This document shows positions 6,452-53,900 of a DNA stretch of 64,000 nt, piece after piece; the stretch's first letter is position 1, and the number at the start of each line of letters is the position of its first letter. The position numbers and the translations under genes were made by a program. Location of the stretch: contig OX387607.1 of NCBI GenBank assembly GCA_947568835.1, positions 13,779,701 through 13,843,700 of the forward strand, given 5' to 3'. This DNA is from Protonemura montana. Lineage: Eukaryota; Arthropoda; Insecta; Plecoptera; Nemouridae. Below the pieces are notes generated by a model. That model worked only from the letters and a program-made list of their open reading frames with translations. It had not been told where the DNA came from and searched no databases.

Positions 6452-7020
6452 CGATGTCCACCCGTGGTAATATAAGATAGCAGAGTTGAGAAGCTCTGTC
6501 AGGCGATCTCAGCATCTCCATGGCAACCACACGTTGAATCAACCATTGAACCTCCTATGCTAGGCCATGATATACCCACGGTAACATAAGATAGCAGAAT
6601 TGAGAAGCTCTGTCAGGCGATCTCAGCATCTCCATGGCTACCAAACGTTGAATCTACCATTGAACCTCCTATGCTAGACCATGATATACCCGTAGTAACA
6701 TAATATAGCAGAATTGAGAAGCTCTGTCAGGCGATCTCAGCATCTCCATGGCTACCAAACGTTGAATCTACCATTGAACCTCCTATGCTAGGCCATGATG
6801 TACCCGTGGTAACATAAGATAGCAGAATTGACAAGCTCTGTCAGGCGATGTCATCATCTCCATGGCTACCAAACGTTGAATCTACCACTGAACCTTATAT
6901 GCTAGGTCATGATATACCCGTGGTGACATAAGATAGCAGAATTGAGAAGCTCTGTCAGGCGATCTCAGCATCTTCATGGCTATCAAACATTGAATCTACA
7001 ATTATATCTCTTATGCTTGA
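6452..7020. repeat. 114-bp satellite, array 1 (about 5 copies)
   Basis: Five successive monomers begin at about 6467, 6581, 6695, 6809 and 6923, an exact 114-bp period. Each carries TAAGATAGCAGA, AAGCTCTGTCAGGCGATCTC, CATCTCCATGGC and TTGAACCTCC. The copies differ by only a few per cent except the last, which fades out. The period is a multiple of three (38 codons). The same monomer forms a second array at 13728-14182. Frame conservation there makes minus-strand open frames, which I regard as a by-product rather than a gene. Confidence 0.95.
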
Positions 7021-13727: not shown

Positions 13728-14182
13728 AGGGTATGCTATATCCGTGGCAACATAAGATAGCAAAATTGAGAAGCTCTTTCAAGCGATCTCAGCATCTCCA
13801 TGGCTACCAAACATTGAATCTACCATTGAACCTCCTTTACTAGGCCATGACATCCCCGTGGTAACATAAGATTGCAGAATTAAGAAGCTCTGTCGGGCGA
13901 TCTCAGCATCTCCATGGCTACCAAACATTGAATCTACCATTGAACCTCCTATACTAGGCCATGACATCCCCGGCCGTAGTAACATAAGATAGCAGAATTA
14001 AGAAGCTCTGTCGGGCGATCTCAGCATCTCCATGGCTACCAAACATTGAATCTACCATTGAACCTCCTATACTAGGCCATGACATCCCCGTGGTAACATA
14101 AGATAGCAGAATTAAGAAGCTCTGTCGGGCGATCTCAGCATCTCCATGGCTATCAAAAGTTGAATTTACCATAAAACCTCCT
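13728..14182. repeat. 114-bp satellite, array 2 (4 copies)
   Basis: Monomers start at about 13747, 13861, 13979 and 14093. Spacing is 114, 118 and 114 bp; the 118-bp unit carries a four-base GGCC insertion. The monomer is the same as in the array at 6452-7020 but with its own shared variants (AGAATTAAGAAGCTCTGTCG against AGAATTGAGAAGCTCTGTCA). The two arrays have therefore homogenised separately. Open minus-strand frames of about 70 codons here only reflect the 38-codon period. Confidence 0.95.
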
Positions 14183-14870
14183 AATTTTCGTTTTCAAAGT
14201 TGACAACGTTACATTTCAGTATTCCTATTTATTTGTTCCATTGGTACTATCATCCAACCATGCAAGCAAAATATTTATCTACTTAAAATACACTTTGTTT
14301 CTTTACAATACATTAACAAAGTTTTAGTTATAATATCATTGATATTATGCTATATCGTCAAATCATATTTTCTGGCAAGCTCTGACCGTTTTTTTTATCT
14401 TTATGCAATGAAATTATTTTGGCGTAACATGACAGAGTAGGTGAAGGATAATGTAGAACGTGGTCACAGCCTTCTATCAGTTGTTAGATATTAAAAGCGT
14501 ATGAATTGTGTCTTGTAATTGCTGGCACGAACCAAGAATGAAATGCCAACCGTTCACTCAATAAGCGTGACTCCACGAGGCGAGTAATTACTTCTAAACT
14601 AGAATCCACCCGCGGCGTTTTTCCAGACTTTTTTAAAAATTACTGTCTGAAAGTGGAGACTCGACGGCGGGTAGGGGTGGCAAGGGGGTGGTACATGGGG
14701 GGAGGGAGAGGGTGGCTGGCTGGGGGATGGGGCGATGTGCAGAGTGAATGACAAAAAGAAAAGAAGCCATTTTCACATTTCAAAAAGTGTGGCGTTAATT
14801 ACTACACATTTCTCCTCTTCATTATTCTTTCGATCTGTCATAGGTCGACCAGTTTCAGCAAATACGTGAC
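14183..14870 (+). other. Intergenic, with G-rich quadruplex-prone block 14667-14735
   Basis: From 14667 to 14735 the plus strand holds many runs of three to six G residues (GTAGGGGTGG, CAAGGGGGTGG, ATGGGGGGAGGGAGAGGG, TGGGGGATGGGG), enough for one or more G-quadruplexes. It lies about 140 bp before the CCTCG/CCTTG microsatellite. The rest of the stretch shows nothing. Confidence 0.65.
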
Positions 14871-15067
14871 TTGCCTCGCCTCGCCTCGCCTCGCCTCGCC
14901 TCGCCTCGCCTCGCCTCGCCTCGCCTCGCTTGCCTTGCCTTGCCTCGCCTTGCCTTGCCTTGCCTTGCCTTGCCTTGCCTTGCCTTGCCTTGCCTTGCCT
15001 TGCCTTGCCTTGCCTTGCCTTGCCTTGCCTTGCCTTGCCTCGCCTCGCCTCGCCTCACCTTGCCTTG
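14871..15067. repeat. CCTCG/CCTTG pentanucleotide microsatellite
   Basis: About 39 five-base units run without a break: first mainly CCTCG, then mainly CCTTG, then CCTCG again. The block structure suggests C-to-T change at the CpG followed by local duplication. The frames opened on both strands (RQGKA- or LPCLA-type repeats) are artefacts of the period. Confidence 0.97.
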
Positions 15068-17330: not shown

Positions 17331-17794
17331 AATGACAGGGTATCAGGGACGATAAAATCACAATTTTTTTTATTTTGTATTTTTTTATTTAATTTATTCG
17401 TCGCGTAAACATTACCAACACATTGTATGGAACGAGGCAGGTAACTAAATTATAATTGAATTCAATGTATACAATTTAAAAAAAAAGCATTCACTCCTTA
17501 TAAAACCATACCAAAATAGTGACCTTATTGTACAGGAAGATAAAACAGAAATTCACCTCCCAAAAAACGCCCTTATTTTCTCTCGAGGAGGTCAAGGATT
17601 TCAAAATTAAATAGGATAAAAGTGGATACGATGCGAATAGACGGGATAGAATCAAATTAAATTATTTAATTCCGCCGAGTCACTGACATTGCAATGAACA
17701 CCACAGGTTTGCTGTAAGTGTTTAAAAAAAAGTAAACTGTTAAATACTTCTGAGTAAATCACCCAGTAATTGAACGTTGATTTAGTGAACGAGT
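17331..17794. other. AT-rich intergenic DNA, nothing seen
   Basis: Mostly A and T runs. One further GCGAATAG word occurs at about 17632. No open frame of interest was found. Confidence 0.55.
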
Positions 17795-18035
17795 AGTGGT
17801 GTTTAACGACGCACTATTTAGACAATGGGTCATGTAGCACTGGTCTTATGACGTCGGTGAATGAGTGGATGATGACGATAATAAATATGAACTATCCTAG
17901 AATACAGGCGGGGAAACCTAGTAGCGGTACGTAGACCACTTCTGTCGAAGATCGCCAGTGTGACCAACGGCTTAACATCCCCACTGTAGGATTGACAACG
18001 CGAACAGGATTCCTCCGTTAAGATTAGGCGATAGG
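17795..18035 (+). repeat. SINE-like dispersed repeat, copy C
   Basis: This copy begins with GTGGTGTTTAACGACGCAC, passes through CTTATGACGTCGGTGAATG, the AGTGGATGATGA block, GGGGAAACCTAG, CGGTACGTAGACCAC and CAACGGCTTAACATCC, and reaches ACAGGATTCCTCCGTTAAG. It gives the head and body that connect copies A, B and D into one family. The final tail module is not recognisable. Confidence 0.75.
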
Positions 18036-18959
18036 GATTAGTTTTAATTATAATCCTCTTATTCTCTCTTTTCATTCACAATGCAACATTTCGTTACAAT
18101 TTCAAGTGTTTGGAAAAGTGTTCAGTTTCAAATCACGAGCGCTGTAACTCTAATGAGCTAGGTGCTACACGTGTAATGAATGATTGTAAATACAGAGGCT
18201 TACACGATGCAATTCTCTGTCCAAAATCGCCAGTTTGTTTCCCTCTCGCTGTTGTAGAAGCAGCGTTATCGTGCGCACGACGGAAATGGCTCCGGATTGA
18301 AACAATTGCTGAGCGACTGCAGTGACTGAGCCGAGCTACAAATTCATCATCTTCCACGATCAGATGCTGCTCGAGTCTTGAGAAATATCGACGGCGAAAT
18401 TTAGCGTCATCTTGAGCGGCAACAAGCCGTAATTGCCTTTCATGCAATTAATCAAAAATAAAATACGGTATCCTGCTTTGAGGAGGATCTCCTGTAGCTA
18501 AAAATATTTTTATTAAACAAAAAAGGGCCCCTAGAATAATCAGTCGTACAGAAAATAGACAAACATGTAAACCATTATTTATAAAGTTCAAGATTTGAGC
18601 TATGACATGTCTTTATATCCTAGATTTAGTTTTATTTGTATTTGACAATCCTGAAAGTTTTAATAAGCAAAGTGATGTTCGTGATTTTAATACAAGAAGA
18701 GGCAATATTTACCGTCCACCGAGAACAAGACTGACTATCACAGAATAGACACCATTGAGCAAAGTAGCAAAGATTTTTAACAATTGACCTGAGCATATCA
18801 AAATCAGAAACTCCAGTAGACAAGCTTTTAAACAATTGACAAAAATGTTTTTGGTGAACTATGCATTTTATACTTTAGACGAATTTGAATCATCAATTAA
18901 TTGTATTTGTAACTACTGTAGATTGTATTGCTAGAATGGATGTGACGATGATATGAACT
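18036..18959. other. Intergenic DNA, no gene seen
   Basis: Two open frames on opposite strands overlap at 18110-18447 without domain similarity. The AT-rich 18600-18950 part may be the eroded upstream portion of the LINE tail that follows, but I cannot show reverse-transcriptase residues in it. Confidence 0.45.
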
Positions 18960-19085
18960 GAAATTACCCATGTATATTAATGTACGTTTTAGACAGGTCT
19001 CCATGCTCCTACAAAATATGTCATAATATGTACAAAGAGTGTTTTCTTCAGAAAAATGTAAGTAAAGGAACAATTACAATTATAC
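18960..19085 (+). mobile_element. LINE 3' tail fragment, copy 1
   Basis: The words ATGTCATAATATGTAC, AAGAGTGTTTT, CAGAAAAATG and AATAAAGGAACAATTA-like sequence occur in the same order at 31180-31262, where they end in an ATT-rich tail. Two genomic copies with a shared 3' end and diverging 5' parts fit a 5'-truncated non-LTR retrotransposon. The family cannot be named from this tail alone. Confidence 0.55.
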
Positions 19086-20080
19086 AAGCTGATTTGAGTA
19101 ATTTAAGCTTATTTGAGTTGAGTAATCATTTTTGAGTGTTAACTACGCCAGGAAAAAAGCCCAACGCAGAAAGTAACAAAAATGTGTTTTTTTGTCAAGT
19201 CATTTGTCATGTTGTGAACTTGCGTTAACATTATCTTTTAGGAGCAAGAATGTGTTTAAACTTTTATGCCGAAATAACGCTTCAGTGTTTTACTGAAGAC
19301 AGAATCAGGAGTGCGAATTTGTTTACCCTTAAAATTCTTCATTTGTTGACATCCCTTGAGGACCAAAATTCGTTACTCGGATTCCATCTTAAAATATTCC
19401 TAATTTTTTTAAGGTTTGCACCCCTAGCAAGGCGAGCTATTTGGATTTAGCATGAACATAATGTTTTAGCCTACATAAATATTATAAGCATGAAAACAGA
19501 AATAACTCCCTCCGTGTTTATCTTGGAAAATATAGGGGTGTACATGTCATTCTCCTTCAAATTATACCTGCAATATTCAAACATCACGTTACATATTTGA
19601 AGTGGGAATCCGATTGACAAATTTTTACCCGCGACGAGTGTCAACAGCGGTAGAATTTCAAGAAGTGTTGAATGCACTTCCCTGTTTTTACTTGCAATGG
19701 ATTTTTTTACCTGCGGTTCTTGATTTTCTTGGTTGTTTGACTCAGCGCCTGCATCGTAGACTTGACATCAGTGCATATGTGTACGACGTGTGGCCTACCC
19801 ATCGGGATTCACAAAGAAATGTTCCCACATCTAGTTTTAAAAGGTTAAATAAACTACGGAAGATAATTTAATTGAGTAATGTGTATTATTATTAATATTT
19901 TTATTGGCATATTCTTTTACGAGTTGTCCTGTCTTGCTATTTGCCTATTTGGCTGTAAGGGAAGATGTTTTCTAGGATTGGAGACGAAATAAGTGAATGC
20001 CGGGTTTTTATCCCGTCTGGTACGCTAAATAAAATTTAGAAACAACTACCTACATTATCATGAAATTCGGTAGTCAGTTC
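19086..20080. other. Intergenic DNA, no gene seen
   Basis: Plus-strand open frames at 19250-19450 and 19602-19871 have no recognisable domain and no splice context. A short palindromic CGGGTTTTTATCCCG word at about 20000 is the first hint of the tRNA-like mosaic that follows. Confidence 0.45.
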
Positions 20081-20472
20081 TTCTAGCCATGTCGCGGTGG
20101 TAGGTCGCCAAGCCAAGTGGGTCGCAGGTTCAAAACCCGGTCGCGCAGCTTTCTGCTGCCCGGGAAAAGGTAAGTAAAATGGTGTGAATAAAAAGATTGC
20201 AGAAATGTTCGTTCCAGAGAATATGTTGAGGTAATTTGTGTACTTGTCATACTCTGAGGCCCTCTTCTGCTATTCAAGTTTATGTTATTTCCCCGCACAC
20301 TACCACTCGTCTCGATGGCTGATTGGGAAGGTTGCTTCTCCAACTATGTCATTCAACGGTCTCGAGCTCAATTCTGTACCGGTATGCTTTTTGTTATTCA
20401 GAAAGGGGCGACTAGAATATTATTGTCAAGAAATTGCATCACGTGTTTTAATAAATCCGTAAAAACGAATTA

Positions 20473-20545
20473 GCCATCGTAGCTCTGTTGCAAGATCTGG
20501 GTCTACGGCAGGAGAGGTTTGCAGTTCGGCTCCCTGCGCCATTAC
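20473..20545 (+). repeat. tRNA-like module
   Basis: An A-box-like TAGCTCTGTTGCAAG near the 5' side is followed 36 bp later by a B-box-like GCAGTTCGGCTCCCTGC. Its ends (GCAG and CTGC) can form a T-arm stem. The acceptor ends do not pair, so it is not called a functional tRNA. This is one of the better-preserved members of the 20.1-25.1 kb mosaic. Confidence 0.5.
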
Positions 20546-21366
20546 ATTTTGTGACCCGGAGGGCATTGATGGGATGGCAAAAAAATAGTCCAAAAGATTT
20601 TTTCCTTTTTTTTATATTTTTTACAAAGTATATCTATAAACTAAACCAACCGCATACCATAGTGCATATTGGTCGAAAGGTAACGATCCCGCGTCGTGGT
20701 TTGAACTGGTTTCATATGACCGATTTCAAATCGGAGTGGAGTCTGCGTTCTGTAATTGAATTTTGGACTTTTTCCGGGTACACGATTGTAGGTGGCGGGG
20801 GCCAGTATCAAAGTTGCGGTGCTTGGGTCAAAACCGTTGACATTTTTGAACCAGTGTGATAAAGTGTATAACTATGCTTTGCAGCTATCGGTTGCGGCGG
20901 TAGTTGTGAACTTTACGTGGTCGCATGTGTAAAGGCCTAGACTCCGATGAGTCTAGGTTCTGATTTACCCAATTCTGAAATATTGGTGAAGTACACATTT
21001 ATAGAATTTTTGGCGTGTGATTATTTAGAACGGCAGTTTTTTTCCAAGAGAAAAAGTCTATGAGCCATGATTAAACGTGCACATACAAATCGAAAAACAG
21101 TATGTGTCTAATTCTGATTTCGCGCCCGATGTAGGTAATTAAGAGCTATTCTAACCTTTGTCACCTTTGTGTAAATTCGTATAACATTGTCTTTCTGAGA
21201 CTGTCCGATCTACGTGGTAAAGGGTCCACGGTCTCTCATCAAAGGTATTTGCCACCTGGATAGAATCTACTCGACGGAGGAACCTGTACACAGTTGTAAT
21301 CCTACAACTGGATAGCTGGAGTAAGGAGACTTTAATATTTCAAGATTGCATCGGACTTCAAATGCC

Positions 21367-22245
21367 CGCTTGGTCGTGAGGTTAATGGCATCGAACATAT
21401 CGTTTACCTGGTAAAATAGTGTGAAATTACTAGGTGTTATCACGTTTATTCCACGACGCGATTTTACACATATGCATTTTTTTTTTGGGCGAATGGCGTA
21501 GACAGTAGCATAATTCTGAAGACTAAAGAATTCGTATTTTAACGGTGTTTTTTTTTGCGAGTTCCGAATTGTTTTATGGTGTTTGAATATTAGTACCTAC
21601 TTACTTACCGATAAACTTCAAAGAAAAGAACATCCGATTGGTATAACAACTCGACCACGAAGTAACTGCGAAATTTTAGTTACGACATAAAAAACACTGC
21701 TAAACTACAACGTGATTAAGCACAGAAAATCCAATCGTTAGTGTTTAGTTGTTTTAGAACCCACGTTAGTTATCTAACGAGGGTGGCTCTGTGGCAGGCG
21801 CTGTGCCTCGAGTCGCGGTAGCGAAGCGTTCGTTCCCCGGCGTAGTCACATTTTTGTATCTTACCATCGACTTAGATAGAATGTGACCAAATGTGAAAAT
21901 TATTAAAAGTCCATAGTGAAGTACAAATTTCTGCCAACAGGTGGCTCAGATGGTAGTTTTGGAATGAACTCTAGTTCGCAATCCTATATACTTGATGCTA
22001 GACTTAGGAGCTGCACACGGGGTTATGGGTGGGGTTCGCGGTCGTGGGAACGGCTCACAAAATTGGCCCAGGAGCTCAGGAGCGCCCGACAACCTTGCTT
22101 TTGTCTTAACCATTCGCCCAAAAAGAAAATGCATTAGTGTAACTCGTCGTGGATAGGACTTGATTCGAACCTAGTAACTCCGCACGCAGCATATCAGGTG
22201 ATCGACAAGTCCGGTGCCTCTAACCGCACGACCAAGCGGACATTT
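21367..22245. mobile_element. 880-bp element with tRNA-like inverted ends
   Basis: The left end (21367-21515, plus) and right end (22075-22245, minus) are similar to each other in inverted orientation. Each starts CGCTTGGTCGTG with GGTTA soon after, an A-box-like start, and ends with a T-run or A-run plus GGGCGAATGG. The right end also has an intact-looking B-box (GGTTCGAATCAAG, minus strand). Between them lie two further tRNA-like modules, at 21777-21850 (GTGGCTCTGTGGCAGG with GCGTTCGTTCCCC) and 21945-22000. The interior recurs inverted at 23735-24290. No open frame of note is present. I read it as a non-autonomous mobile or rearranged unit; target duplications could not be identified. Confidence 0.5.
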
Positions 22246-22424
22246 TTGTTGTGGTACATTGTTGAGATATTTCACTCTTCTGACTCAAGCTACCCAACGC
22301 ACTTCATCTGGATCATATTTTTGTTGAAGGGATGGTGAGAAAATAAGCCGAAGTATACTTTTAATTTTTTTTTACTGAGTTATTTATAGAATACATATAC
22401 GATCTATACCTCTATCCGTGAATG

Positions 22425-22512
22425 GAGGGTGCATTAGCTCATTAGGAGCGAGCTAGGGACAGAGGATAGTGGTACTGTGTTCAAATCCGGGCAGTTTTTT
22501 TTTTTTTTTTGT
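22425..22512 (+). repeat. tRNA-like module with T-run
   Basis: TTAGCTCATTAGG (A-box-like) and TGTGTTCAAATCCGGG (B-box-like) lie 34 bp apart, and a run of about 15 T follows directly after GGGCAG. The order and spacing are those of a polymerase III unit with terminator. The stems of a cloverleaf pair poorly, so it is more likely a SINE head or tRNA pseudogene than a working tRNA. Confidence 0.5.
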
Positions 22513-22794
22513 GGACAGGATAGCACTGAAGAGTGTTTTGATCTTTCGAGTAAAACAATAGCATGGGTTTGTGTCAGGTTTGCAGTGCTCGAGTCACGTG
22601 GTCATGTTGGTACTAGCCAACAGTCTAATTAGTCGACCAGTTTCGAACCCCGGCGCCGCCACTGGACGACAGTTGTTCAACAAGATGAAAGATCTGGGAG
22701 CTTTAAGTAATCGATAATATTAAACTCAGAAAATATCTTCTATATCTTCGATACGGCGTTCGAAGTCGGTTCCCTTTGTTAAAACCCAAAATAT

Positions 22795-22875
22795 GTCAGC
22801 CGCTCTTGTAGTCGAGCGGTGAGGTCGTCCGGTTGATGTAGTGAAGGTTCCGCGTTCGAGTCTCTGCCACGTAAT
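22795..22875 (+). repeat. tRNA-like module
   Basis: TTGTAGTCGAGCGGTGAGG near the 5' side resembles the A-box region of class II tRNAs, and CGCGTTCGAGTCTCTGCC gives a B-box. Spacing is about 45 bp. Serine- or leucine-like layout is possible, but the anticodon arm does not pair. It overlaps the inverted copy of the shared unit at 22895-23060 only at its edge. Confidence 0.45.
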
Positions 22876-23384
22876 AGTAAAATGATAGTTTTGCCATCAT
22901 CAGGCGTATCAACATACGAGTTACCGACTGAAGTCCAGCATTAATTGATCGAGTACATTTATTACCCAACAGATTGCGCTGGGGGTCACGGTGCGTCTTA
23001 ACACGACTGCACGTTCGGTGAAACTTTACAAATAAGAATAAGTGGGGGCACTGTGATCTTCCATAGGGCTTTGATGGGCGGTCCTCCTATCAGCCTCTAA
23101 AGCTTGCGTTCTCGCGTTAGCTTGTTGCAAATGGTGAAAGCCCATATTTTTTAGTTGTCCAGTGCTTCTGCAAGGTGTGGTTGCCGGGTTTAGCTATTGC
23201 TAGCGAGGACGAATATTAACTGTCCGCGATATTTAAAAAAAAATTAAATATGAATTCCCTGACTGCTGACTGGCATGCGGTTCTAAAACGAACTAAACAG
23301 AGGGTGCAGTCGATGTGATGTAGCAATCAAGAAGCCGGACTTTCAAACATGAAATTCAAATAGGTTCATCTTTCTCCATCATGC

Positions 23385-23475
23385 CTGGACGTGAGCGTGG
23401 CACATTGGCATCGTCGCTGCTTCGGAAGCGTCAAATATATTCGCTACCGGGATCAAATCCCACTCGACGGAGGAA
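23385..23475 (+). repeat. tRNA-like module (related to 21200-21290)
   Basis: GTGGCACATTGGCATCG is followed by CCGGGATCAAATCCCACTCG. The downstream words ACTCGACGGAGGAA also occur at about 21270, after a comparable CTGGATAGAATCTACTCG. The two are therefore diverged copies of one module about 2.1 kb apart in direct orientation. The B-box carries an A where the consensus has T. Confidence 0.45.
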
Positions 23476-23559
23476 GCTTTTGACTGTTGGAATGCATTTT
23501 CCATCCGTGTTCGTTGGAGTCAGAAGACTCATATATCTAAAAAATTCAGACAATAGTGT

Positions 23560-23735
23560 TGTCCACATGGTCTTGTGGTTAAAGGCATTGAATTCAACGA
23601 GTTGAATGTGGATGTGAATGTGAATGTGAAGTTCCTCGGTTCGAATCACGTTCGATCCTCGACGCAGTTTCACACTGACAAATTATTTTTTTTTCTTTTG
23701 GGCGTTTGATAAAGACAGTAGCAAAACTGCCTGGC
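23560..23735 (+). repeat. tRNA-like module, class II layout
   Basis: ATGGTCTTGTGGTTAAAGGC fits an A-box and D-arm of serine or leucine tRNA type, and CCTCGGTTCGAATCACG fits a B-box. The variable region is swollen by a TGTGAA-like microsatellite. A T-rich tract (ATTTTTTTTTC) follows about 35 bp later, then the GGGCG and GACAGTAGCA words shared with 21487-21512. It is the third copy of the module that forms the ends of the 880-bp element. Confidence 0.55.
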
Positions 23736-23775
23736 GCTCCTGTCGCTTCGCGCCAGTCGCGCCCGGCAGTTTTGC
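23721..23775. other. Nested cruciform-forming sequence
   Basis: GCAAAACTGCC (23721-23731) and GGCAGTTTTGC (23765-23775) are perfect 11-bp complements. Between them, CTGGCGC (23731-23737) and GCGCCAG (23750-23756) form a second stem, giving a stem with an inner side hairpin. The homologous place in the left arm of the long inverted repeat (about 22045-22090) has lost this symmetry. Confidence 0.75.
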
Positions 23776-24329
23776 GGGCCGTTCCCACGACCCCAAACCC
23801 CACCTATACCCCGTGTGCAGCTCCTACGTCTAGCATCAAGTATATAGGAACGGTAGGTAATTAGTGTTAGCGACAACCAGAGCCACCTGTTGGCAGAAAT
23901 TTGTACTTCACTCTGGACTTATAATATTTTTTCATATTTGGTCACTTGCTATCTAATTCGATGGTACGAAACAAAAAGCCGCCACGCCGGGGAACGAACG
24001 CATAGCCACCACGTTATGAAGCACAGCGCCTGCCACAGAGCTACTCTCGACAGATTTATAGTACGGGTTCTAAAACAACCAAAGACTAACGTTTGGATTT
24101 TCTATGCTTAATCACGTTGTAGTTTAGCAGTGTCTTTTACGCCGTAATTAAAATTCTGCACTTATTACGTGGTCGAGTTGTTATACCACTCGGATGTTAT
24201 TTTCTTTTAATTTTTTCAGTAAGTAAGTACAAATAATCAAACACCATAAAGCAATTCTAAACACTAATTCTTTAGTCTTCAGCGTGCATCTCAGGTTTTT
24301 AGCTTTTCCAATATCCTCTAACGGCAACA

Positions 24330-24670
24330 AGAGAAGCTGGATCTGACACCCACGCCACGCGGTGCTAGCGTCCTTGGCCACTCCAAAATACGGGCTTCAA
24401 TCCAACTCAATCTAACGTCATAGACCAGCATTTGAGTCCGACTGGAGGAACGCCAGTCGGTCTCTGTTGCATGTTGATGGATTCCCAGTGGCATGACTCT
24501 CACTAAGTATGTACGAACACGCAGTCGAGCTAAGTCAGGTAAGGCTAGGTAAGTAAATAGACAGCGAACTCTGCTGGATATCAACTGCACTTGATAAATT
24601 GAAATGTCGATAAATCACGTCCATCGGTTGGTAACTCGTATGTCTACTCCTCGCTAGGCTGTTGCAGGTA
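24330..24670 (+). repeat. Shared repeat unit (copy 1)
   Basis: Landmarks in order: AGCTGGATCTG, TTGGCCACTCCAA, ATCTAACG, a hairpin GACTGGAGGAACGCCAGTC, CACTTGATAAATTG, CCATCGGTTGGTAACTCGTA and TACTCCTCGCTAGG. The same order recurs at 27460-27770, and part of it recurs inverted at 22895-23060 (ACGAGTTACCGACTGAAGTC, AATTGATCGAGTACATTTA, GTTCGGTGAAACTTTAC). This links the outlying blocks to the 20-25 kb mosaic. Confidence 0.6.
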
Positions 24671-24711
24671 GAACACATGCAATTTATATATTCAAAAAAT
24701 GCACTATTGCT

Positions 24712-24797
24712 GAGCCGGACTTGTATTCTAGTGTTTATGCTGCCCGATTCAAGTGCATTGAGGTCCGCGTTCAATACCCATCCGCGGAACTTTTTTT
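24712..24797 (+). repeat. tRNA-like module with T-run
   Basis: A GGACTTGTATTCTAGTG word precedes TCCGCGTTCAATACCCATCC (B-box-like), and a run of eight T follows about 12 bases after the B-box region. The A-box is weak. It lies just beyond shared repeat unit copy 1. Confidence 0.4.
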
Positions 24798-25070
24798 TAT
24801 AGGTACATTAGTAGTAATTGGTTGTTTCTGAGAAATGTGAAATACATCGAAATTAAGTAGTTTCGAAATTTTTGAAACCATTTGTGTTTCATTTCTCTAT
24901 TTATTAACAAATTTCCGACTTAATTTTGTACATTTTGAATTTTTTTCCTTTTATCTAAAAAATAGATAGGCTTATTTGGTGCTATTTGTCGTCAAACGTG
25001 GAATTAGAAGATTCCCCAACCCCTTGTGAGCTGGTTGAAATGTTTCCGTTTGAATCCCGTTTGAAATGCA

Positions 25071-26991
25071 TCATAATCTTTCCTTGCCAGGTAGGTACTT
25101 TTAAATAATAATAATAATAATAATAATTTTATTCGCAGTTTACAATGTTACATGTTATGCTTCGTCAAACTTAAAAATAAAATAAAATAAAATAAAAGAG
25201 CAACTAATAATAAACATGTACTGATAAACATATTTATAAACTAATAAACATGTCATGTTACATGACACCAATCTAATATTTTTGGTTGTAGTCAGTCCAA
25301 TGGTAAAATTCTTTTTCTATTAAAAACAATTTGACATATCTTTTAAATATTTTCATGCTGAAGTTAAAATAAAAATAGACTCGTCTCAAAAAGTGCTGAT
25401 TGATGATTGAATGATGCTGGCATGCCTTTCCATCTTGTGTTATGCTGGTGTAAAGTCTTCTTGGCGAAAAGCGCGGCATTAGATTTTACTAATATTGTCA
25501 GTTATAAAATGTAGATTGATGCCAGAGCTAAAATATATTCTGTTAAATCATTTTCCCTGTTAAAACCCCGTTGAATCGCTGTATTAGTGTCACATTTAGT
25601 TATGCTCCGAAATAGTCTACAAATTAAACCCATTTCCAGTCGTTTCAAACCGATTCCGGCAATTCCTATACGGGGTGCAAATTTGCATGTGCAACGTGCA
25701 AAAATGACGTCACGCAAATTATGGCTTTTATGTAAGTAAAAAAACACAAGTTTCTATTAGCATAGGATTGTAATTTGTTAGTGTAAACCCTTTGCAGCGT
25801 GTGAGCCTATGTAGCATTGACTGCCATTGCTAGGTAAATGTTCTAGCTATTTATGTTTTGGCTGATTCTTTTTCAAGCATATTGTTTTTACAAACATAAT
25901 GACTCTTCTGTAAGGATAATAAAATTAAAATACATTGCATTACATTGTATATTATACAAGAATTATGTTTACCCACATTTTTTCAGCACAAAACTCTTCA
26001 AAATATTGCATGAAACCAGCAATCACACAACACCAAAACACAACAATCTCACCTTGCCTCACGATCCCATTTTGTCAAACCATAGTCAGATGATCTCGAG
26101 CTTCTTTCTTCCTGCCCCTTGAAAAGGATCATCATGAGGTGATCGAATGGTGGTCTACCCAAATCAAACAAACAGCAACCGTACTGACGCGTGAATACTA
26201 CCTCAACTTGTCAACCATCTGCCAACAAACCGTCCGCCCAAGTTTGAGATAATCACAAACAATTAGCTAATTTCCACTACCCCAAAAACATTTCTAAAGA
26301 AGGCCCAAAGATACGAGATCCGTAAACATCTCAACAAGAGTTTTCTAATATTTGATAGAAAAGATGCAATTGTTGCCTTGCTACGATGATAGGTTTTGAA
26401 TTTTGTGAGATATCTTTTATGTGTTTTGTTTATCGGTGCTAGCGACTGACACCTGTGGAAAATGCGAGGTTTCCGTGTGAGAATCTAGAGATGGCGGTCA
26501 CGTCTGCAGGCATTCTCTTGTCATGAACGCTAATCGAGGCTGGCATGGGTTCACACTTCACATGAAAGCATAGTCGGTGTCGGGTTTCGACATTTTCTTG
26601 TGCTCATGTTCTTTTGTTCTTGTTGAAAAAAAGTACATGTCTTTTAGGGTATTACTTGGTTGTCTACTCTGGAAAATGAACCCAACAATGCTATGCTTAA
26701 AACCATCTGAATATGACTAGGTAATAGCATCGAGTTTATAGGTCTAGTCAGAGGATCAGCGCTTTATGTAAAATTTTCTAATGAGCAAACGATCCGGCAA
26801 CATGTGATAACGGTAGGTGCCATCCGATGGTGCTTGCGGCCGTTCTTTATAACAAATCTCACCACTCAATAGTAACTGAAAATATCATTGCATTTATTTT
26901 GATTGTTGAGGTTGGCATGACCATAGCGAGCGGAGCCAGCGAAGCGAAATCTAAAATTTAACTTCCCCCAAAAAATTGGTTGTGTGTGTGT
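25071..26991. other. Intergenic DNA with short microsatellites
   Basis: AAT repeats lie at 25104-25127 and AAAAT repeats at 25173-25197. The remainder shows no gene. Open frames at 25502-25747 and 25853-26122 have no recognisable domain. The segment after 26866 leads into a GTC triplet tract. Confidence 0.55.
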
Positions 26992-27459: not shown

Positions 27460-27770
27460 TCTTGTCTGGTAGCTAGATCTGGGCCCGAGCAGAGAGGGGC
27501 TCTTGGCCACTCCAATATAGGGCCGTTCACCATTTGCTACGATCTAACGAGAGAGAGAAAGCCTTTTGGCTCGACTAGAAGAACGCCAGTCGAAACCCGT
27601 ACCCCCCTCAACAGTTTCTGGTCCTCTTATCCGAAAAGTTTCACAAGGTTTCACCGAACATTAAATGTACTTGATCAATTAAAAATGGACATCGGTCGCC
27701 GCATGGTCGTTATGCCAACTATACTTTTATCACAGGTCGGGCGACACTACTCGTTAAGGTATTGCAGACT
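27460..27770 (+). repeat. Shared repeat unit (copy 2)
   Basis: This matches 24330-24670 in order: GCTAGATCTG, TTGGCCACTCCAA, ATCTAACG, GACTAGAAGAACGCCAGTC, AATGTACTTGATCAATTAA, GGACATCGGTCG and ACTACTCGTTAAGG. The retrotransposon begins at or just after its end, so the LINE appears to have inserted into this unit, or to be joined to it by 5' truncation. Confidence 0.55.
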
Positions 27771-30385
27771 GGCATGATCGCGAAGCAAACCTGCTGCTCG
27801 AGTTTAACATCACATCTCTAATTAAAAGACCAACAAGGGTTACACCGAAATCCAGTACCTGCATTGATTACATCATGACAAACGTCACAGACTTCACAGC
27901 CGTACGATGCATGGAAACAGGCTTATCAGACCACTTAGGACAATTTGCATCATTCAAGCTAGAGACACCAAACAAAACTTCCACAGCCAATAAGACACAT
28001 ATGAGAAGAAACTACAACGAGAAAAGCAGAGAACTCTTGAAACGGGACCTAACAACAACAGAATGGAATTCTGTCTGGGACGAACCCACAATAGATAGAA
28101 AATATGAAGCATTCATAACAACATTCCTAAATATATTTGACAAACATTTCCCACTAGAACCTAAGAAGACTCGGATAAAACCACAAAAAGCTCCGTGGAT
28201 CACAGAAGAAGTAAAAGAAGCATGCTATCAAAAAAGAAGAGAAAAAAGAAGAGTTACAAGACTCCTTCGCAAAAATAGAAAGAAAAACAAAACTAATTGC
28301 TTCAAACTCATCGAAGAGGCCAAAACAATGAAAAGATGCGTTCAATCACTCGTTAGGTCAACTAAAACAAGATACAATGAAGGGTTTATAAAAAAGGCCA
28401 CCAACAAAGGCAAAGCCACATGGCAAATACTAAGCAAGCAACTGGGGAAGAAGAAACCACGGAGGAACGCAGAAGACGAACTGAAAATAGAAACAGAAGG
28501 ACGAGTTATTTGGAAAGGAAAGGAAGTAGCAGAATCACTCAACAGATTCTTCATCGAGATGGCGGATTCGTTGGTAGACACGAAGAGTGACACGACATCA
28601 AACTGCAAGAAAATGCTCGAAAAAAACATACAGCCACCAAGAAGCTGCATGGAACTTAACCCGACTAATGCTTGGGAAGTTGCGCAAACAATAGGGGAAA
28701 CCAAGCGCAAATGGTCCTCAGGGTGGGATGGGGTCCCGGCAGCAATAATTAAACAAGTAGGCCCAGCTATAGCAGCTCCGTTGGCACACATATGTAACCA
28801 GTCCTTCAGAGAAGGCAAATATCCGCACATAGCAACTTGGGCTTCAGTCAAACCCGTATATAAGAATAAAGGCAGTGAGTTAGAGATGAACAATTATCGC
28901 CCTATTTCATTGTTAAGTAATTTTGCGAAGATTATATCAAAAATATTCTACACGCGACTCCTAGCATTCACAGAAAACAACAGCATACTCTGTAAACAAC
29001 AGCATGGATTTAGAAAAAACCGGTCAACCACCACCGCAGCCTTCAGCCTAGCACACCGAGTAGCGGAGGCACTAGAAGCTAAACAACACGTGGGGACGAT
29101 CATGTTCGACCTGTCAAAGGCATTTGACACTATTCAACACAACACTCTATTACTGAAACTCGATTATTATGGCATCAGAGGGTTAGCTCTGGAATGGATT
29201 AGGTCATACATCTCAAATAGGAAGCAAAGGGTAACAATCAATGACGACACTTACAGGTCAGAGTGGGGATCAGTTAAAACCGGATTACCGCAAGGGAGCA
29301 TACTGGCCCCAATACTGTTCAGTCTATATGTAAATGACCTCGTAGCGAACTTACCACTAAACATCAGCGAACCAATCCTATTTGCAGATGACACGAGTGT
29401 CGTGGTGCACGGTAGCAACAGAAATGAGCTCATCACAAACCTTACCGAAGTCTCAGAATGCATTAACAACTATTTCTCTGCTAATAAGCTAAAATCAAAC
29501 GAAGACAAAGCCCAAATAATGACATTCCACACGATTGGGAAACAGCTGGAGTGCCAGGAAATGGAAATAGTAGAGAATAGTAAATTTCTGGGATTCACAA
29601 TAGATTTTAAACTGAAGTGGAAACCACACCTGATAGACTTAGAAAAAAAGCTCAGTTCAGCCTGCTACGCACTCAGAATAATATCCAGATTCAATAATGA
29701 GGCGACGCGAAGAATCGCGTTCTTCGCAAACATACAATCCCTAATTACCTATGGCATTGTCTTGTGGGGAGGGTCAATATTTGCTGAACGAATTTTTAGG
29801 AAACAGAAAAGAGCGCTACGCATTATACAGAGGGTTGGAAGAAAGGTGTCATGCAAGAAAATATTCGTAAGGAAACAGATTCTAACGTTACCATGCTTGT
29901 ACCTCCTAAACATATTGCTCTTTGTAAAGGACAATCCAACACACTTCTTAAAAAATAATACGATCCATGACAAGAACACAAGGTCCCGGGACGATATACA
30001 TCCACCAATGAGCCGCCTCACAGTAACAGCAAGAGACCCCTCCAGAATCGGAGTCCATATATACAACGGTCTCCCGAATCATCTCAAAACTCTAGATGTA
30101 AGCAGAGATGTGTACAAATGTAAAATAAAAAACTACCTAATGAATAACGCTTTTTATAGCATTAATGACTATTTAAAAAGAACAAACTGTTTATAACTAT
30201 ACTGTAAAATAAAACATTTTATTGTATTTTATGACATGATTTATAACCTGACTATTTCCAAGACTCCGGCTTTATTTAAAAAAATAAAACTATTATGGAG
30301 TGAGCCTAACTTGTATGTTAAAATATTATGTACCTGAATACTGTGCGACGGAAAATAATAAATAAAAAATAAAAAAATAAAAATA

Positions 30386-39266: not shown

Positions 39267-42200
39267 TCACGCATTTCGATCCACAAAACGAAACTTGAGA
39301 GGTCTATCTGGCATGGAGAGAAGTCGAGCCGGCGCCTTCACATCTCCGTAATGGTATTCGATACGGAAGTTACGAACCAGCTGAAAAACCAGCCAGAAAA
39401 ACGTTGTTCTTGGTGTTAGTTCTGAATTTTGCAGTATCAATTACCAATTTAAAAGCAATCCCTCTCACATTAGGTTACTTTTTAGCTTAATTGCTATTAA
39501 TGGAGGAAGTTCAGAAATAAAGGTCAGACAAGGTACCTTGGCTGTGAGCGTGTACAGCTGCAACTCGGCCAAACTTCGGCCAAGGCAGGACCGAGCTCCG
39601 TGGCCGAAAGGGATTGATGCAAACGGATGCACGTCTGCTTCCCCAACCATCCAACGCTCAGGTTTGAAACGGAGAGCGTCTTCAAAGTTTTCTTCACGCA
39701 GGCAAGCAACATGGCTCGTCATCAGCATCAACGTCTGTAGGCATTCAATACTTGGTTTTAACTTGAGACGTTTATAGCTAAGTGGAAGTAAGACACACTG
39801 TTTTCGTACTCAAAAAGATACAACTAGCAGAAGACTTCAGATTAAATTGATTTAAGAAGCTTATGAAAACCATTTTCAGGTTATCAAAGGCAATTACAGC
39901 AAATACCTACCCCTTTTGGAATTTTGTAGCTGTGGAGAGCAATGTCTTTTGGCAACACTCGAGTCATCACTGGTATCGGAGGATTCAATCTAATAAATAA
40001 TAAAACAAGAAACAAATATTTTAAATTAGTATCGTAAACACAAATACACTCAAAAATATGTGCCCAATCAAGAACTCAAACCCTAATCCCCACATTTTGT
40101 GGATATGCTCTAACCACATGACATTTTTGAGACGATTTTAGAGTATTTAATGAGAATGATAAATCTCCAAGGTATAAGACTACGAGACTGTGAATTATAA
40201 GCAACATCACAGACATGTTTGCAACCTCGACAACTAACCTCAAGCTCTCCTTGACGCATGCGCGCAGCAGTGGCATGTGCTGGAAAATTTCTGGCTCGAG
40301 TTCGGAACTCTTCAGCGGCATCATTGGGGAAATCTCCTCGAAGAGTTCTCGCTGGACTCTAGGGCTCTTGGCCAGGCGGTAAAGCAAGAAGCACATCGCA
40401 TGGCTGGTCTGGAACGCACAAGATAAGCAATTGCATTTGTCATTTAGCCCAAGAAATAATGTAGCAGGGTTATCTACATTTGCCTATTTGTGAGAAATGA
40501 AGAATTTGAAAACTTGGGAATGTTTGATCATGAGGAATTGATGGCTTCTGGAGTTAAATGATGCACTGTTTTGGCAACACGCTCTTTGGCACTGGTCTTA
40601 TGGCATTCAGTTAACGAGTTTACATTAATTGCAAATGTAAATAATACAATGGTGGTGTATAATAGTTTCATACATTCTTAACTTGAATATGGACTTCTGC
40701 TATGGGGAAATTCCCATTGTACAAAAAGGTTTTTCACCCTCCAAAAATGAGCGCTTAGATGCATGTTAGGAGCAAGTATTAACCCAACAGCCAATGTTTT
40801 CTATAAAGTCTCACGTAAGGAAACTGACGTCTCATGTATTTAAGAAACTGACAATTTTAACTTTACCTTGTATGTGTTTATTTGTACAATCAATAATGTT
40901 TTAAATCACGTGACACTTGAGAATGATCAAACAACGTGACTTACCAGAAACACTACCAATTTCAAAACTGAACAACTAAGGACAGAATTAAAAAAACAAG
41001 ACCCTATGTATGCGGGAGAAAAACTTTATAATGCACTCCCAAAAAGGGATCCAGATCATCACACACCTTAAAAAGTACCTGATTGAGGAATGTTTTTACT
41101 CAGTGAACAAGTTTTAAAAATTGCTCTAGTTATAGTTCTGTGTTCATATTTTTAATTTTTCAAACTGTCAATATCACTGTACAATGATCAAACGACAAAA
41201 TAAATTGTCTTATACTAAATGAGGATGATGATTAATCTAATCTAGCGTAGCCTAGAACAGAGGAGGGAAAACCTGGTGCAAGTACGTGGCATACTCTTGT
41301 TGAAGAGCACTTAGGGGACCACCGGCTCAACGTCTCTTCCAAAGGACAGTACAATGCGAACAACAGGATTCCTCCACAAATAGAAGCTGTCGAGAGGTTG
41401 ATAAGCGAGGCGAGTGAAGTTGCTGTACTAACTTTCCTCCACACACAACAGAACTGGTCATGTCTATGGTACACCCAACCAGTACCTAACCCAGCGCAGT
41501 GTTGCTTAACCTCGGTGATCTCGCAAGATCCGGTGTCTCCAACACGCTAAAACTGTTCGGTTTGAACTTCGGTTGGTTAGCCTTTTGTTGTGAAAAGAAG
41601 CAGATAATCATAATTATATTACTCGGTAATTTCCTGATTTTGTTCATAAATTCTTCTTCCTCATTGGATATGCATAATACCATAATGTTCCTTGCAACAC
41701 TAGTAAGTACTGGGCCACCAGGGTTCAATTTAACTCAAATTTCACTCCTGTAAGGCACTTTCCTTGCATCAGACAAGTCACAGAATCGTGATATCAATCT
41801 AACAGTACCAGTCTCTCAACGATTGAAACTTCTTATCTCACCGCATTGACTCCTATGAGCAGGGAGTCAAGCACCACGGTGAGAACGTCTTCGGGAAGCA
41901 TGTCTTCTGCCAGCAACAGCGCCTCGAGCAAAGAAGGATCCGGCGACGCCCGGTCCACTGCGCCGGCTTCTTTCTTCATGCGCAGCCGATTCTGAGTGAC
42001 GCGGATGTACTTAGCAGAGATCCTGGGAACCAGAGACATGTCACTGGAATCAGGATTTGTTGCATGGTGGATAGTTGGGGGTTTCTTACGCCAGTTTACC
42101 AGTTTGAGGGAAATTTGTTAGTCAGTACTGTACTTTGCCTATTTTATTCTATCAAGTAGAAGAGCTATCACACTACAGTCCACTCTACCACAATAAACCA

Positions 42201-50900: not shown

Positions 50901-53900
50901 ACAAATGAGTGCGATTCATTGAATTCCCAACTCAAATATGTAAGAAGCTCATCGCGACAAAACGCGAAATTCACGAAAAATCATCCATAACACCGAAATC
51001 AACCATTTCCCGCGAAATCATCGCGAAATGAGCCTTTTCCCATCCAATTATCTTAAATTTCAGATAATCTGTTATTTTTTTCATTTTTATCAAATCATAT
51101 TTCACGGAAAATAAATAAACAAACCCATTTGTTTTTATGCTAAATTAAGAGATAATGAAGCTATTTCACTATAATACGTGTATTTTGCGAAATAGCCACT
51201 TATTTCCATGCAAAAATGTAAAATGTTTATGTTATCTCTATAAACACACATTTCCATGGATTTGTCATATTCAGTTCTGTTTCTCATCAAATGCTGTCAA
51301 CATTCCTAAGCTTAGGGGGTAGAAGTAGTGGGGCAAAATGTTTGCTGTAGGAAACCATTGCCATTGGTTGGCTGAATCTTCCCCTCCTTGCCATGTGCGC
51401 ACCAGCACCACATGCATTCAGTCTATATAGAGATTAGCTGGGATTTCAAATTTCAATGGGGTGTAATAAATCTTTGACTTTTGAGGATCCAGCAAAGCAA
51501 CTCTTTGTGAGTGATGGATATATTTTGATGTGTGGAATCTGGAACACCAGACTTGTCTGGGAGAAAAAAGACAATCTTGCAAAGTATGTTAGTACCAGGC
51601 AGTGGGTCTAATTCAAATTCTAATGGACATAAAAATCTCAAACCCCTCATTTGCAGTCCTGACTTAGCAAACTATTTGAGCCCCTGTGAACAGTGTTGAT
51701 GCAGAGAGGTTTTTTAGTCAATAAAACCTTGTGCTGACTGACAAAGGAACAAGAATGAAGGAAGCTACCATTGAAACTTGTTCAATGTTAAGTTTTAACA
51801 AGTAGTAGGTGTTGCTCATGCTGCCATACAATGTATTTCATGGTGGCATTTCTGAAAAATATTTATATGTGCTATTAATTTTGTTCCAAGTCCCTTACAA
51901 ATACCGATGTTGAGGACCTACACTAAATATTTGCTTTATTGTAATTATTATTGATCACTTCTTTATTAGAGATCCCAGTGCTTACCCTAAATCTTCATTC
52001 CTTTCGAATGTAGACCGCAAAAGCTCTTTTTTTCTATTTAGCTATAAACGCTAAAATTCAAATAATTAGCACTAAAATTTCGATAAAACTAATGCTAACA
52101 ACACGTACCTTCCTTTTTCGTCACCTATGTCTGAAATCTGCTATAGACATGAAATTCTGTACTTTTTCCATAACACCGCCATAACACCGAAATCCAAAAA
52201 GCTTACCACGAAATTATCGAAATCATAACACCATAAAATCTTGGCTCTAGTTATTTGGTCTGGTCTGGTATGGTTGAACTGTTGGTGGTGGTGGTTTGGT
52301 CAGGTCTGGAATTTGATAATATTAACTTGTTGTAAGATCTGTGCTGGGCTAACCCAATTGTTTCCAAAGCTGATGTAAATGCATTTTGAATAAAAAACTC
52401 TACCTAATATTGTTTGAAAGCACTTCATCATTATTTTAACTTTAAAGATGCACTTTAAAGTTATTCAGCCCTTTACAAACTTTGACTTTTCTTTGGCACC
52501 TCTCAAAGAGAACAAACATGATTTAGGAAAACTCAAACACTCAAGGTGCTCAGACAGCAGTTAAATACCAACGAACCAGACCTCGAACCGATATCGGAAA
52601 AAAAAAATGACCGGACTCACTTCATCGTCTCGTAGTCGATATTGTCCGGCATCTCTGGCCCAGGCTTGACCAGACAGAACGGCCGGATTGTCTCAGGTAC
52701 GTTGGACTCCACCCAGTCCCTGACTGGGAGCACCGAGCGCCATAGTATGAGCGCTCGTGCCACGATGCGCAGGAGCAGGAAGTCCGGGCGTACAAAGTCC
52801 AGGAGGTACTGCGTGTCCGGGGCCTTCATCCAGTCAGCCACCGCCCGGTTGCCGGTGTCGAAATACATCATGCCGAGAGCCAGCGTCGCACCGGGGCTGG
52901 TCACGTCGATGTTGGCAGAGTCACCTGCAAGGCAACGGAATTTTCAAGGACTTTTTAGAAGATAGATGAGTTCTGCGTTGATGGGAATAGAGTTAGATAG
53001 GCTAATTTGTGATTTATTGATTTTTGATTTACAAAAATTTCGGAATTTTAGGCAAGGTACGTTCATTTCGTAAGGGATGTTAAGTCAGTTGAGATTTAAC
53101 CCCCTGATATAGAAAACAATACATGTGTTGGGCTCAAAGTTAGTCAGAGTTACACCGCTAATGTTAAAAGTTCCACCAAGCTAACCGGCCTCGATTTTGT
53201 GGTAACTGGTTCCGGCCACTTGCAGTCGTCCCAAACCTCTATAATTAAATAATTACAACTCAAAATATTGATCCTTGTATATCAATTATTGGTGAGCTGA
53301 ACGTACTAAAGACAAATTGAGTGGAAACCAGTCTCAAATGCAAGTAATCTGTGAGAAAAAAACAAAATTACATTTCCGAATGACGGTTACCCCATCTCTG
53401 GGTGATCCCTATATCTAGGCCATTCTTTTCGATATAGTAAAGTATAGTTATCAATCGGCAATTTCCGTGAAGACAGTTTAACATTAACCCTCGTGGCTCA
53501 TGTAATGAAACATGGGAAAAACAGACTGCCTTTTGGTAGGGGAACGAGGCTGGAAAAATGTACGACTGAACCGGAATACAAACCGCCAGTCAGGTACTCT
53601 ACCAACCGAGCTATCCGGGCACACCAGATTCCACTCTCGCAATGTGGGAAGCAATCTCCAAAATGAAGTAACTTTGCATTCAAAGTGGTCGACGTACCTT
53701 CCCTGATCTGGTAGCTGGGCGACTTGTACTTCTCCTTCTGTGAACCGGTGAGGGGCCTACGATGCCCGCCAACCATGTAGTGGTGCAGGGTGTCTGAGAT
53801 TGCAAGGTCTCCAAGTCCGCACAGCTGGGACCCCTTGCCGAGCACCACCAGACCAAGCGCCAGTCCAGCGGCAAGAGAATACGACTCGCGGTCCACGCTG

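What the first reader, a model, noticed from the sequence alone, without database searches (positions are those of the whole stretch)
20081..25070. Dense mosaic of many different tRNA-like (A-box/B-box) modules
At least nine clear and several weak polymerase III promoter-like pairs lie in 5 kb on both strands, some with T-runs just after. The modules are not copies of one sequence: some have class I and some class II spacing. A single tandem tRNA gene or one SINE family would not give this. It may be a graveyard of several tRNA-derived SINE heads, a decayed tRNA-gene cluster, or an unusual Pol III-bound domain (such loci act as insulators in other eukaryotes).
Basis: partly seen in the sequence, partly recalled or inferred. 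Interest (0 to 1): 0.75.

Follow-up and report, generated by a model that had tools for sequence, protein, structure and literature searches.

The report
Dispersed Pol III promoter-mosaic repeat family
A stretch of an animal chromosome carries about a dozen different promoters of the tRNA-gene type that do not make tRNAs; it belongs to a non-coding repeat family spread through the genome in which a short core, a hairpin and many of the promoter and stop signals are kept better than the rest.

Summary
With box models from 35 distinct tRNA genes of this genome, 20081-25070 has 12 A/B-box pairs of at least 13 bits (11 sites), against 1.8 +/- 1.65 in 100 shuffles and 0-2 in the other bins. They are not tRNAs: no cloverleaf stands out. 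A decayed tRNA cluster is not supported and a SINE-head graveyard is disfavoured. The stretch is one copy of a non-coding dispersed repeat family: a 36-bp core occurs 717 times, control 0, and the order of the arms recurs. The unit is two convergent cassettes (A box, B box, T-run) flanking a 55-nt hairpin and a C/G-rich core. Over distant copies core, hairpin and unit boxes are better kept than flanks; in the closest copies only the core clearly is. The cassette RNAs show no shared fold. I read it as a family held together by Pol III/TFIIIC recruitment: a non-autonomous amplifying element or a chromosome-organising platform. Sequence cannot separate the two. The core is absent from viral contigs; limited paper searches listed nothing like it.

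The parts
19084..25090 (+). window copy of the dispersed non-coding repeat locus (left arm, centre with inverted units, right arm); the ends are not sharp
   Evidence: matches to other loci start at about 19086 and run to about 25090; a further 25540-25701 piece also matches
20090..20155 (+). module M1: weak A box 20090, strong B box 20127; B-box block 20121-20155 conserved; no T-run
   Evidence: 15.3 bits; block found 16 times genome-wide at <=3 mismatches; T-run absent
20316..20400 (+). module M2: A 20316, B 20365, T5
   Evidence: 16.8 bits; same module in the C2 locus, followed by a long T-run
20480..20545 (+). module M3: A 20480, B 20523 (below the 13-bit cut-off)
   Evidence: 12.7 bits; 15.1 bits in the C2 locus
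21566..22286 (-). inverted copy of the central unit (76% to 23517-24257)
   Evidence: self-alignment
21784..21870 (+). module M5 (same kind as M12): A 21784, B 21827, T5
21994..22029 (-). decayed copy of the 36-bp core
   Evidence: 5 mismatches
22120..22236 (-). module M6 (same kind as M11): A 22235, B 22171, T-run
   Evidence: A box read by eye
22435..22510 (+). module M7: A 22435, B 22478, run of 16 T; best boxes of the window
   Evidence: 25.7 bits; counterparts in held loci L010, L018, L020, L044 (B box and T-run) and L012 (T-run, broken B box); a whole-genome search with 111 bases had found none
22599..22650 (+). module M8: A 22599, B 22640; no T-run
   Evidence: A box read by eye
22809..22890 (+). 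module M9: A 22809, B 22853, T4
   Evidence: 16.6 bits; 7 copies in held loci
23398..23485 (+). module M10: A 23398, B 23450, T4
   Evidence: 21.0 bits; 40 copies in held loci
23568..23700 (+). module M11: A 23568, B 23638, run of 9 T; left, convergent cassette of the unit
   Evidence: A box read by eye
23721..23775 (.). 55-nt hairpin with compensatory changes between copies
23776..23850 (.). C/G-rich core (four runs of 3-4 C/G); 36-bp probe at 23802-23837
   Evidence: 717 genomic copies at <=3 mismatches, control 0; best conserved segment
23960..24043 (-). module M12: A 24043, B 24000, T5; right, convergent cassette of the unit
24518..24559 (+). right-arm block of 42 bp, conserved far above its surroundings
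   Evidence: 18 genomic copies at <=3 mismatches, control 0; alignments
24707..24800 (+). module M13: A 24707, B 24768, T8
   Evidence: 13.6 bits; related to M9

Best explanation
It is one copy of a large, dispersed, non-coding repeat family made of heterologous RNA polymerase III type-2 promoter cassettes. The repeated unit is two convergent cassettes (A box, B box, T-run terminator) on either side of a hairpin and a C/G-rich core; fuller copies add further, different cassettes in left and right arms in a fixed order. Shown: box enrichment, loss of tRNA structure, copy number, unit geometry, uneven conservation, and a hairpin kept by paired changes. Inferred: TFIIIC binds the boxes, Pol III makes short RNAs of roughly 85-130 nt that end at the T-runs, and it is this recruitment and transcription, not the RNA fold, that is selected. 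The likeliest reason for that selection is propagation of the family as a non-autonomous amplifying repeat, with expansion into direct and palindromic arrays by recombination. A chromatin role of the bound sites is the main alternative and is not exclusive.
For: Box enrichment in the window and in homologous clusters elsewhere. Core 717 hits, M11 A-box pattern 157, M12 A-box pattern 129, left M1 block 16, right block 18, each with 0 in the reversed-pattern control. M1 block and right block lie in the same order and orientation 2.6-4.4 kb apart at 6 loci. Of 75 cores with full flanks, 53 have the M11 A box (usually about 220 bp upstream) and 36 the M12 A box (usually about 210 bp downstream, opposite strand). 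T-runs of >=4: 27 of 28 M12-type and 30 of 30 M11-type copies, collected by similarity to a query that includes the T-run. M7 keeps B box and T-run in 4 of 5 other held loci while its body differs. At flank divergence 25-30% core sites differ by 5.5%, hairpin 9.2%, M11 and M12 boxes 13%, M10 boxes 17%. In close copies boxes are not consistently slower than flanks, which fits selection during amplification rather than on standing copies. No shared RNA fold of M12 or M11 transcripts but a covarying hairpin between them. The one ORF of the stretch that was scanned has no Pfam hit.
Against: No transcription or occupancy data. No sharp element ends, target-site duplications or partner enzyme were found, which a mobile element should have. 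Box conservation is clear for M12 (A and B), M11 B and M8 A, middling for M11 A, M9 and M10 B, and absent for M10 A and M8 B. In the closest copy pairs (flanks <2% apart, 14 pairs) the hairpin differs at 10 of 770 sites, no less than the flanks (38 of 4,539), and in 8 pairs at 2-5% the M12 boxes differ at 16 of 130 (12%) against 3.1%. M1 and M8 lack a T-run in the window. 22 of 75 cores lack the M11 A box and 39 of 75 the M12 A box at my cut-offs. Four of the 10 weak pairs predicted in M12 RNAs have at least one change on both sides. Pairs are not independent, and held loci were chosen by similarity to the window.
Confidence: 0.5

Rival explanations
1. Host-selected chromosome-organising platforms: clusters of TFIIIC sites that act as insulators or domain borders, with the hairpin/G-rich core as a further protein site. 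Copies are kept because the chromosome uses them.
For: Core sites show 0 differences of 1,108 in copy pairs whose flanks differ by less than 2%, against 38 of 4,539 elsewhere, as selection on existing copies would give. Dispersed on the chromosomes: the 100 exact core hits listed fall in 45 clusters (counted by hand). TFIIIC sites without Pol III are linked to insulators and SMC complexes in other organisms (passages of PMC4226948, and PMC11346459).
Against: The boxes and hairpin, unlike the core, are not consistently slower than flanks in the closest pairs. T-runs are kept with the boxes, which binding without transcription does not need. Long arrays of near-identical units look like selfish amplification. 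Position relative to domain borders unknown.
Confidence: 0.2
2. Graveyard of several tRNA-derived SINE heads that happened to collect in one place and was then duplicated.
For: Module sequences align to different tRNAs better than every one of 200 plain shuffles for 6 of 9; the genome does have tRNA-like SINE-type sequences (at 53568-53620; two divergent tRNA-like sequences).
Against: With boxes fixed, similarity to tRNAs is weak (3 of 9 at or under 5%). Cassette patterns are not commoner than the unit core (157 and 129 against 717), though the patterns differ in length and are not strictly comparable. Order of modules is shared between loci and distant copies conserve unevenly.
Confidence: 0.12
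3. A multicopy family of genes for functional small non-coding RNAs, in the manner of vault or Y RNA genes.
For: Promoter and terminator both kept; the hairpin shows compensatory change.
Against: The predicted RNAs of M11 and M12 have no clear shared fold (consensus -0.33 and -1.54 kcal/mol); at the gathering score 12 held loci give only a 5S-like Rfam hit. The hairpin lies between the cassettes, past both terminators.
Confidence: 0.12
4. Chance: ordinary repeat sequence rich in B-box-like words, over-read.
For: B-box-like words are short, and the tRNA covariance search finds nothing above the rest of the window.
Against: 12 pairs against at most 7 in 100 shuffles; boxes are among the best conserved stretches for M12 A and B, M11 B and M8 A.
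Confidence: 0.06

Closest known systems
tRNA-derived SINEs, including those with two tRNA-like units (Twin of Culex, recalled; not confirmed)
   Same: Type-2 Pol III boxes, T-run, dispersed copies, no coding found
   Different: About nine kinds of module in one 5-6 kb ordered locus on both strands; no tail or target-site duplications seen
Extra-TFIIIC (ETC) loci and tDNA insulators
   Same: B boxes without working tRNA genes; possible role in chromosome structure
   Different: Terminators are kept too, and A boxes in several modules; sites sit in a repeated sequence family with a hairpin and G-rich core
Viral tRNA-like gene cluster (TMERs of murine gammaherpesvirus 68; search listing with abstract starts only)
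   Same: Several different Pol III type-2 cassettes close together (recalled)
   Different: No viral genes found here, hundreds of chromosomal copies, no tRNA-like fold
Foldback-type elements (recalled)
   Same: Long inverted repeats, internal tandem repeats, palindromic arrays
   Different: No defined ends or target-site duplications found; Pol III cassettes are not, by recall, a feature of foldback elements

Membership tests
tRNA gene or tRNA pseudogene cluster | cloverleaf score above background | tested here: not met
   ARAGORN 0, Rfam none; own tRNA model: 3 of 14 listed hits in the stretch, best 12.7 bits against 14.3 elsewhere in the window
tRNA gene or tRNA pseudogene cluster | A and B boxes at tRNA spacing | tested here: met
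tRNA-derived SINE | Pol III type-2 head | tested here: met
tRNA-derived SINE | head similar to a tRNA beyond the boxes | tested here: inconclusive
   3 of 9 modules at or under 5% of box-fixed shuffles (M11 redone, 28 of 500)
tRNA-derived SINE | many free-standing copies with tail and target-site duplications | tested here: inconclusive
   only copy numbers were looked at; one search missed M7 copies that one search shows, so absence in such a search means little; tails and duplications of single modules were not examined
Extra-TFIIIC (ETC) locus | TFIIIC bound without Pol III | not testable with these tools
   needs ChIP data
Extra-TFIIIC (ETC) locus | B box present, terminator not under constraint (my inference from the definition) | tested here: not met
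   T-runs in 27 of 28 and 30 of 30 copies, collected with queries that include the T-run
Foldback or other DNA transposon | constant ends with target-site duplications | tested here: inconclusive
   ends vary between copies; no empty site available
Virus-derived repeat | viral genes or match to viral contigs | tested here: not met
   a 19-base core pattern has no exact match in viral contigs; no long ORF in the stretch, the one scanned has no Pfam hit

The most novel reading that the evidence does not exclude
A new kind of genomic element: a multi-kilobase, protein-free Pol III platform in which pairs of convergent, non-tRNA type-2 cassettes stop on either side of a conserved hairpin/G-rich core, present in some hundreds of dispersed units and kept by selection for what the paired transcription or TFIIIC loading does to the chromosome at the core.
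Probability: 0.25. Interest if true: 0.85.

Novelty: new variant of a known kind. Interest (0 to 1): 0.6.

Why it matters
Pol III type-2 promoters are known from tRNA genes, SINEs and a few small-RNA genes. A repeat family in which many unrelated cassettes are kept, without tRNA fold and with terminators, would be a natural test bed for whether Pol III loading itself shapes chromosomes or drives repeat amplification. The convergent cassette-hairpin-cassette unit gives a concrete, testable arrangement with hundreds of copies in one genome.

Tried and rejected
tRNA genes: rejected by ARAGORN, Rfam and an own covariance model. Isotype affinity: looked good against plain shuffles but mostly vanished once boxes were held fixed; for M11 that script had fixed the wrong A box, and the repeat with the right one gave 28 of 500. 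M7 as a lone module: a whole-genome search found no second copy, and I first believed it; a closer look at held loci shows counterparts in five, so that argument was dropped and the odds of the SINE-graveyard rival raised from 0.10 to 0.12; those of the organiser were lowered from 0.22 to 0.20 because of the close-pair figures. Coding element: stop-to-stop frames of 150 residues or more in the held loci were listed but not scanned against Pfam; the one window ORF of the stretch that was scanned had no hit. A short open stretch right of the right arm, begun by an ATG in several copies, stops after about 22 codons and was dropped. Virus: no match to the core in viral contigs. Sharp element ends: not found. 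Splice-site-like words in the right arm (24540-24550 and near 25085) were noticed, not tested. Organism: not identified; the AMPK beta and proteasome/cyclosome-repeat ORFs fit an animal, arthropod by my recall. Paper searches: eight ran, three of them with 0 papers; none of the listings showed such an element. PMC4226948 and PMC11346459 were seen as passages, the other papers as listings only.
Full report
What was checked first. The window lies in a genome of 258.5 Mb in 34 contigs, an animal by its genes. I took 48 tRNA sequences of that genome (37 distinct; 2 of these left out because no B box was matched, so 35 used), made A-box and B-box matrices and scanned both strands. In 20081-25070 there are 12 pairs at 13 bits or more, against 1.82 +/- 1.65 (maximum 7) in 100 dinucleotide shuffles, and 0-2 in the other twelve bins of the window. 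One pair is the opposite-strand reading of another, so 11 sites remain. Real tRNAs score 18-34 bits; only M7 (25.7) and M10 (21.0) reach that range. Nine of 11 sites have a run of at least 4 T within 70 nt after the B box and seven of 11 at least 5 T (P = 0.009 and 0.003 against base rates; 5 of 14 sites outside have at least 4 T).

They are not tRNAs. ARAGORN finds none in the window. Rfam finds no tRNA in 19-26 kb at E <= 10. A covariance model built from 20 of the tRNAs, run with filters off, lists 14 hits in the window at E <= 10; three lie in the stretch (12.7, 9.0 and 6.8 bits), and the best, 14.3 bits, lies at 53568-53620. Module sequences (consensus for seven, window letters for M1 and M7) align to tRNAs better than all of 200 plain shuffles in 6 of 9 cases. 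With the boxes held fixed M2, M12 and M3 stay at or under 5% (3, 12 and 24 of 500), M11 lies at 28 of 500 once its A box is placed rightly (20 of 500, where the wrong A box was fixed), and M7, M9, M10, M1, M8 do not stand out (66, 97, 120, 201, 243 of 500). So the resemblance sits mostly in the promoter boxes.

It is a repeat family. A search of the genome with 20081-25070 gave 329 matches (34 of 862 candidates scored, so a lower bound), many in tandem or palindromic arrays. The 36-bp core occurs 717 times at up to 3 mismatches, the reversed control 0; the 100 listed, all exact, fall into 45 clusters by my hand count. M11 A-box pattern: 157; M12 A-box pattern: 129; left M1 block: 16; right block: 18; all controls 0. 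At six loci the M1 block and the right block lie in the same order and orientation, 2.6 to 4.4 kb apart. A second long locus on C2 aligns with the window over 19210-21233 at 71% and over 24439-24736 at 86%, and has box pairs of 12 bits or more at the places of M1, M2, M3, M10, M11 and M12, with poor A boxes at M1 and M12. In 12 other 10-kb loci, box pairs run at 9.7 per 5 kb inside the clusters and 1.5 outside (96 in 49.6 kb, 21 in 70.4 kb); these are homologous copies, not an independent sample.

Anatomy of the unit. The window has two inverted units (21566-22286 and 23517-24257, 76%). A unit is M11 (+), T-run, hairpin, C/G-rich core, T-run, M12 (-): two convergent cassettes. Among 75 distinct cores with full flanks in the held loci (80 cores in all), 53 have the M11 A box (<=8 of 25 mismatches), 56 the M11 B box, 36 the M12 A box and 45 the M12 B box, mostly at distances near 220, 158, 210 and 170 bp. 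The misses run from 19 to 39 of 75; by eye many are units in palindromic arrays that lack one side.

What is conserved. Across 47 aligned sequences (window and 46 copies) the mean share of the commonest base is 0.965 in the core, 0.942 in the hairpin, 0.921 and 0.935 in the M11 and M12 boxes, 0.898 in the M10 boxes and 0.825 elsewhere. At flank divergence of 25-30% the core differs by 5.5%, the hairpin by 9.2%, the M11 and M12 boxes by 13%, the M10 boxes by 17%. Close copies tell a mixed story: in 14 pairs with flanks under 2% apart the core shows 0 of 1,108 differences and the M11 boxes 1 of 350, but the hairpin 10 of 770, against 38 of 4,539 in the rest; in 8 pairs at 2-5% the M12 boxes differ at 16 of 130 against 3.1%; in 4 pairs at 5-10% the core shows 4.4% against 6.9%. 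Pairs are not independent. So the core is slow at nearly every distance, while boxes and hairpin are slow mainly between distant copies, as expected if their selection acts along the lineages that amplify. By sliding windows, M12 A and B rank 7 and 5 of 94, M11 B 5 of 137, M8 A 3 of 144; M11 A 36 of 137, M9 A and B 22 of 111, M10 B 26 of 122; M10 A (63 of 120) and M8 B (57 of 148) are not raised. T-runs of at least 4 follow in 27 of 28 M12-type and 30 of 30 M11-type copies, which were collected with queries that include the T-run. M7, which a whole-genome search had not found elsewhere, has counterparts in five held loci: B box and T-run are kept in L010, L018, L020 and L044, and in L012 the T-run is kept and the B box is broken.

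Structure. RNAalifold on 28 M12-type and 30 M11-type copies gives consensus energies of -1.54 and -0.33 kcal/mol, with 4 of 10 and 0 of 6 pairs changed on both sides in some copy: no clear shared RNA fold. The hairpin is different: in 32 distinct same-length hairpins (25 of 80 cores did not fit that length) 686 of 736 pair cells are standard, more than in any of 1000 shuffles (mean 678, maximum 684), and one pair is T-A in 17 and C-G in 12. The margin is small and these counts share ancestry, so the number of independent paired changes is small. The consensus folds at -40.1 kcal/mol as RNA. The core carries four runs of C/G that could form a quadruplex; that is a reading of the sequence, not a test.

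What it is not. No long ORF lies in the stretch, the one ORF from it that was scanned has no Pfam hit, and a 19-base core pattern has no exact match in viral contigs. Outer ends are not sharp: left of the conserved words some copies carry a variable array of a 19-bp word, and homology fades at different points. I found no target-site duplication and could not look at empty sites.

How it most likely works. Boxes and terminators are kept between distant copies while the RNA between them shows no clear fold. That points to selection for recruiting TFIIIC and Pol III and for stopping transcription before the hairpin and core. I think the family most likely spreads or persists through that activity as a non-autonomous repeat (0.5); a host-selected chromosome-organising role is the chief rival (0.2) and fits the slow core in nearly identical copies. 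ETC loci, which share the B boxes, are described as having TFIIIC without Pol III (passages); the kept T-runs here argue against a pure ETC reading.

Novelty. Searches of the paper library (three of them empty) listed SINE papers, TFIIIC and insulator papers and viral tRNA-like genes, and nothing with about nine kinds of type-2 module in one dispersed locus family. That is a limited search, and repeat libraries could not be consulted, so the family may be listed there under a name. I rate it a new variant of a known kind.

Noticed in passing
window 27485-27698: A further short piece related to the same repeat family (short matches at about 69-96% in many held loci), about 2.4 kb right of the main stretch.
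   Followed up: partly
window 53568-53620 (-): Best tRNA-like hit of the window (14.3 bits), probably the head of an ordinary tRNA-derived SINE; two sequences scored as tRNAs (L083, L084) look related to it by eye.
   Followed up: no
window 41443-41560 (-); L049:1193-1313 (-): 5S rRNA-like sequences above the Rfam gathering score; perhaps 5S-derived repeats or pseudogenes.
   Followed up: no
window 27875-30196 (+): 773-residue open frame with a reverse transcriptase domain (PF00078), a LINE-type ORF, next to the repeat locus.
   Followed up: partly
window 24518-24559: 42-bp block nearly unchanged in 18 loci with two 5'-splice-site-like words, and a 3'-splice-site-like word near 25085: the right arm might be spliced from a Pol II transcript.
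   Followed up: no
window 6460-7017 and 13742-14183; 14870-15067: Two arrays of one 114-bp satellite, and a CTTGC pentamer array.
   Followed up: no
window 18900-19083 and 17790-18016: Two other dispersed repeats; the first ends where the repeat locus begins.
   Followed up: no
G000:C16: Left-arm matches are frequent on contig C16: 9 of the 18 strongest non-self matches (down to C16:1034877). The cause is unknown; a sex chromosome is a guess.
   Followed up: no
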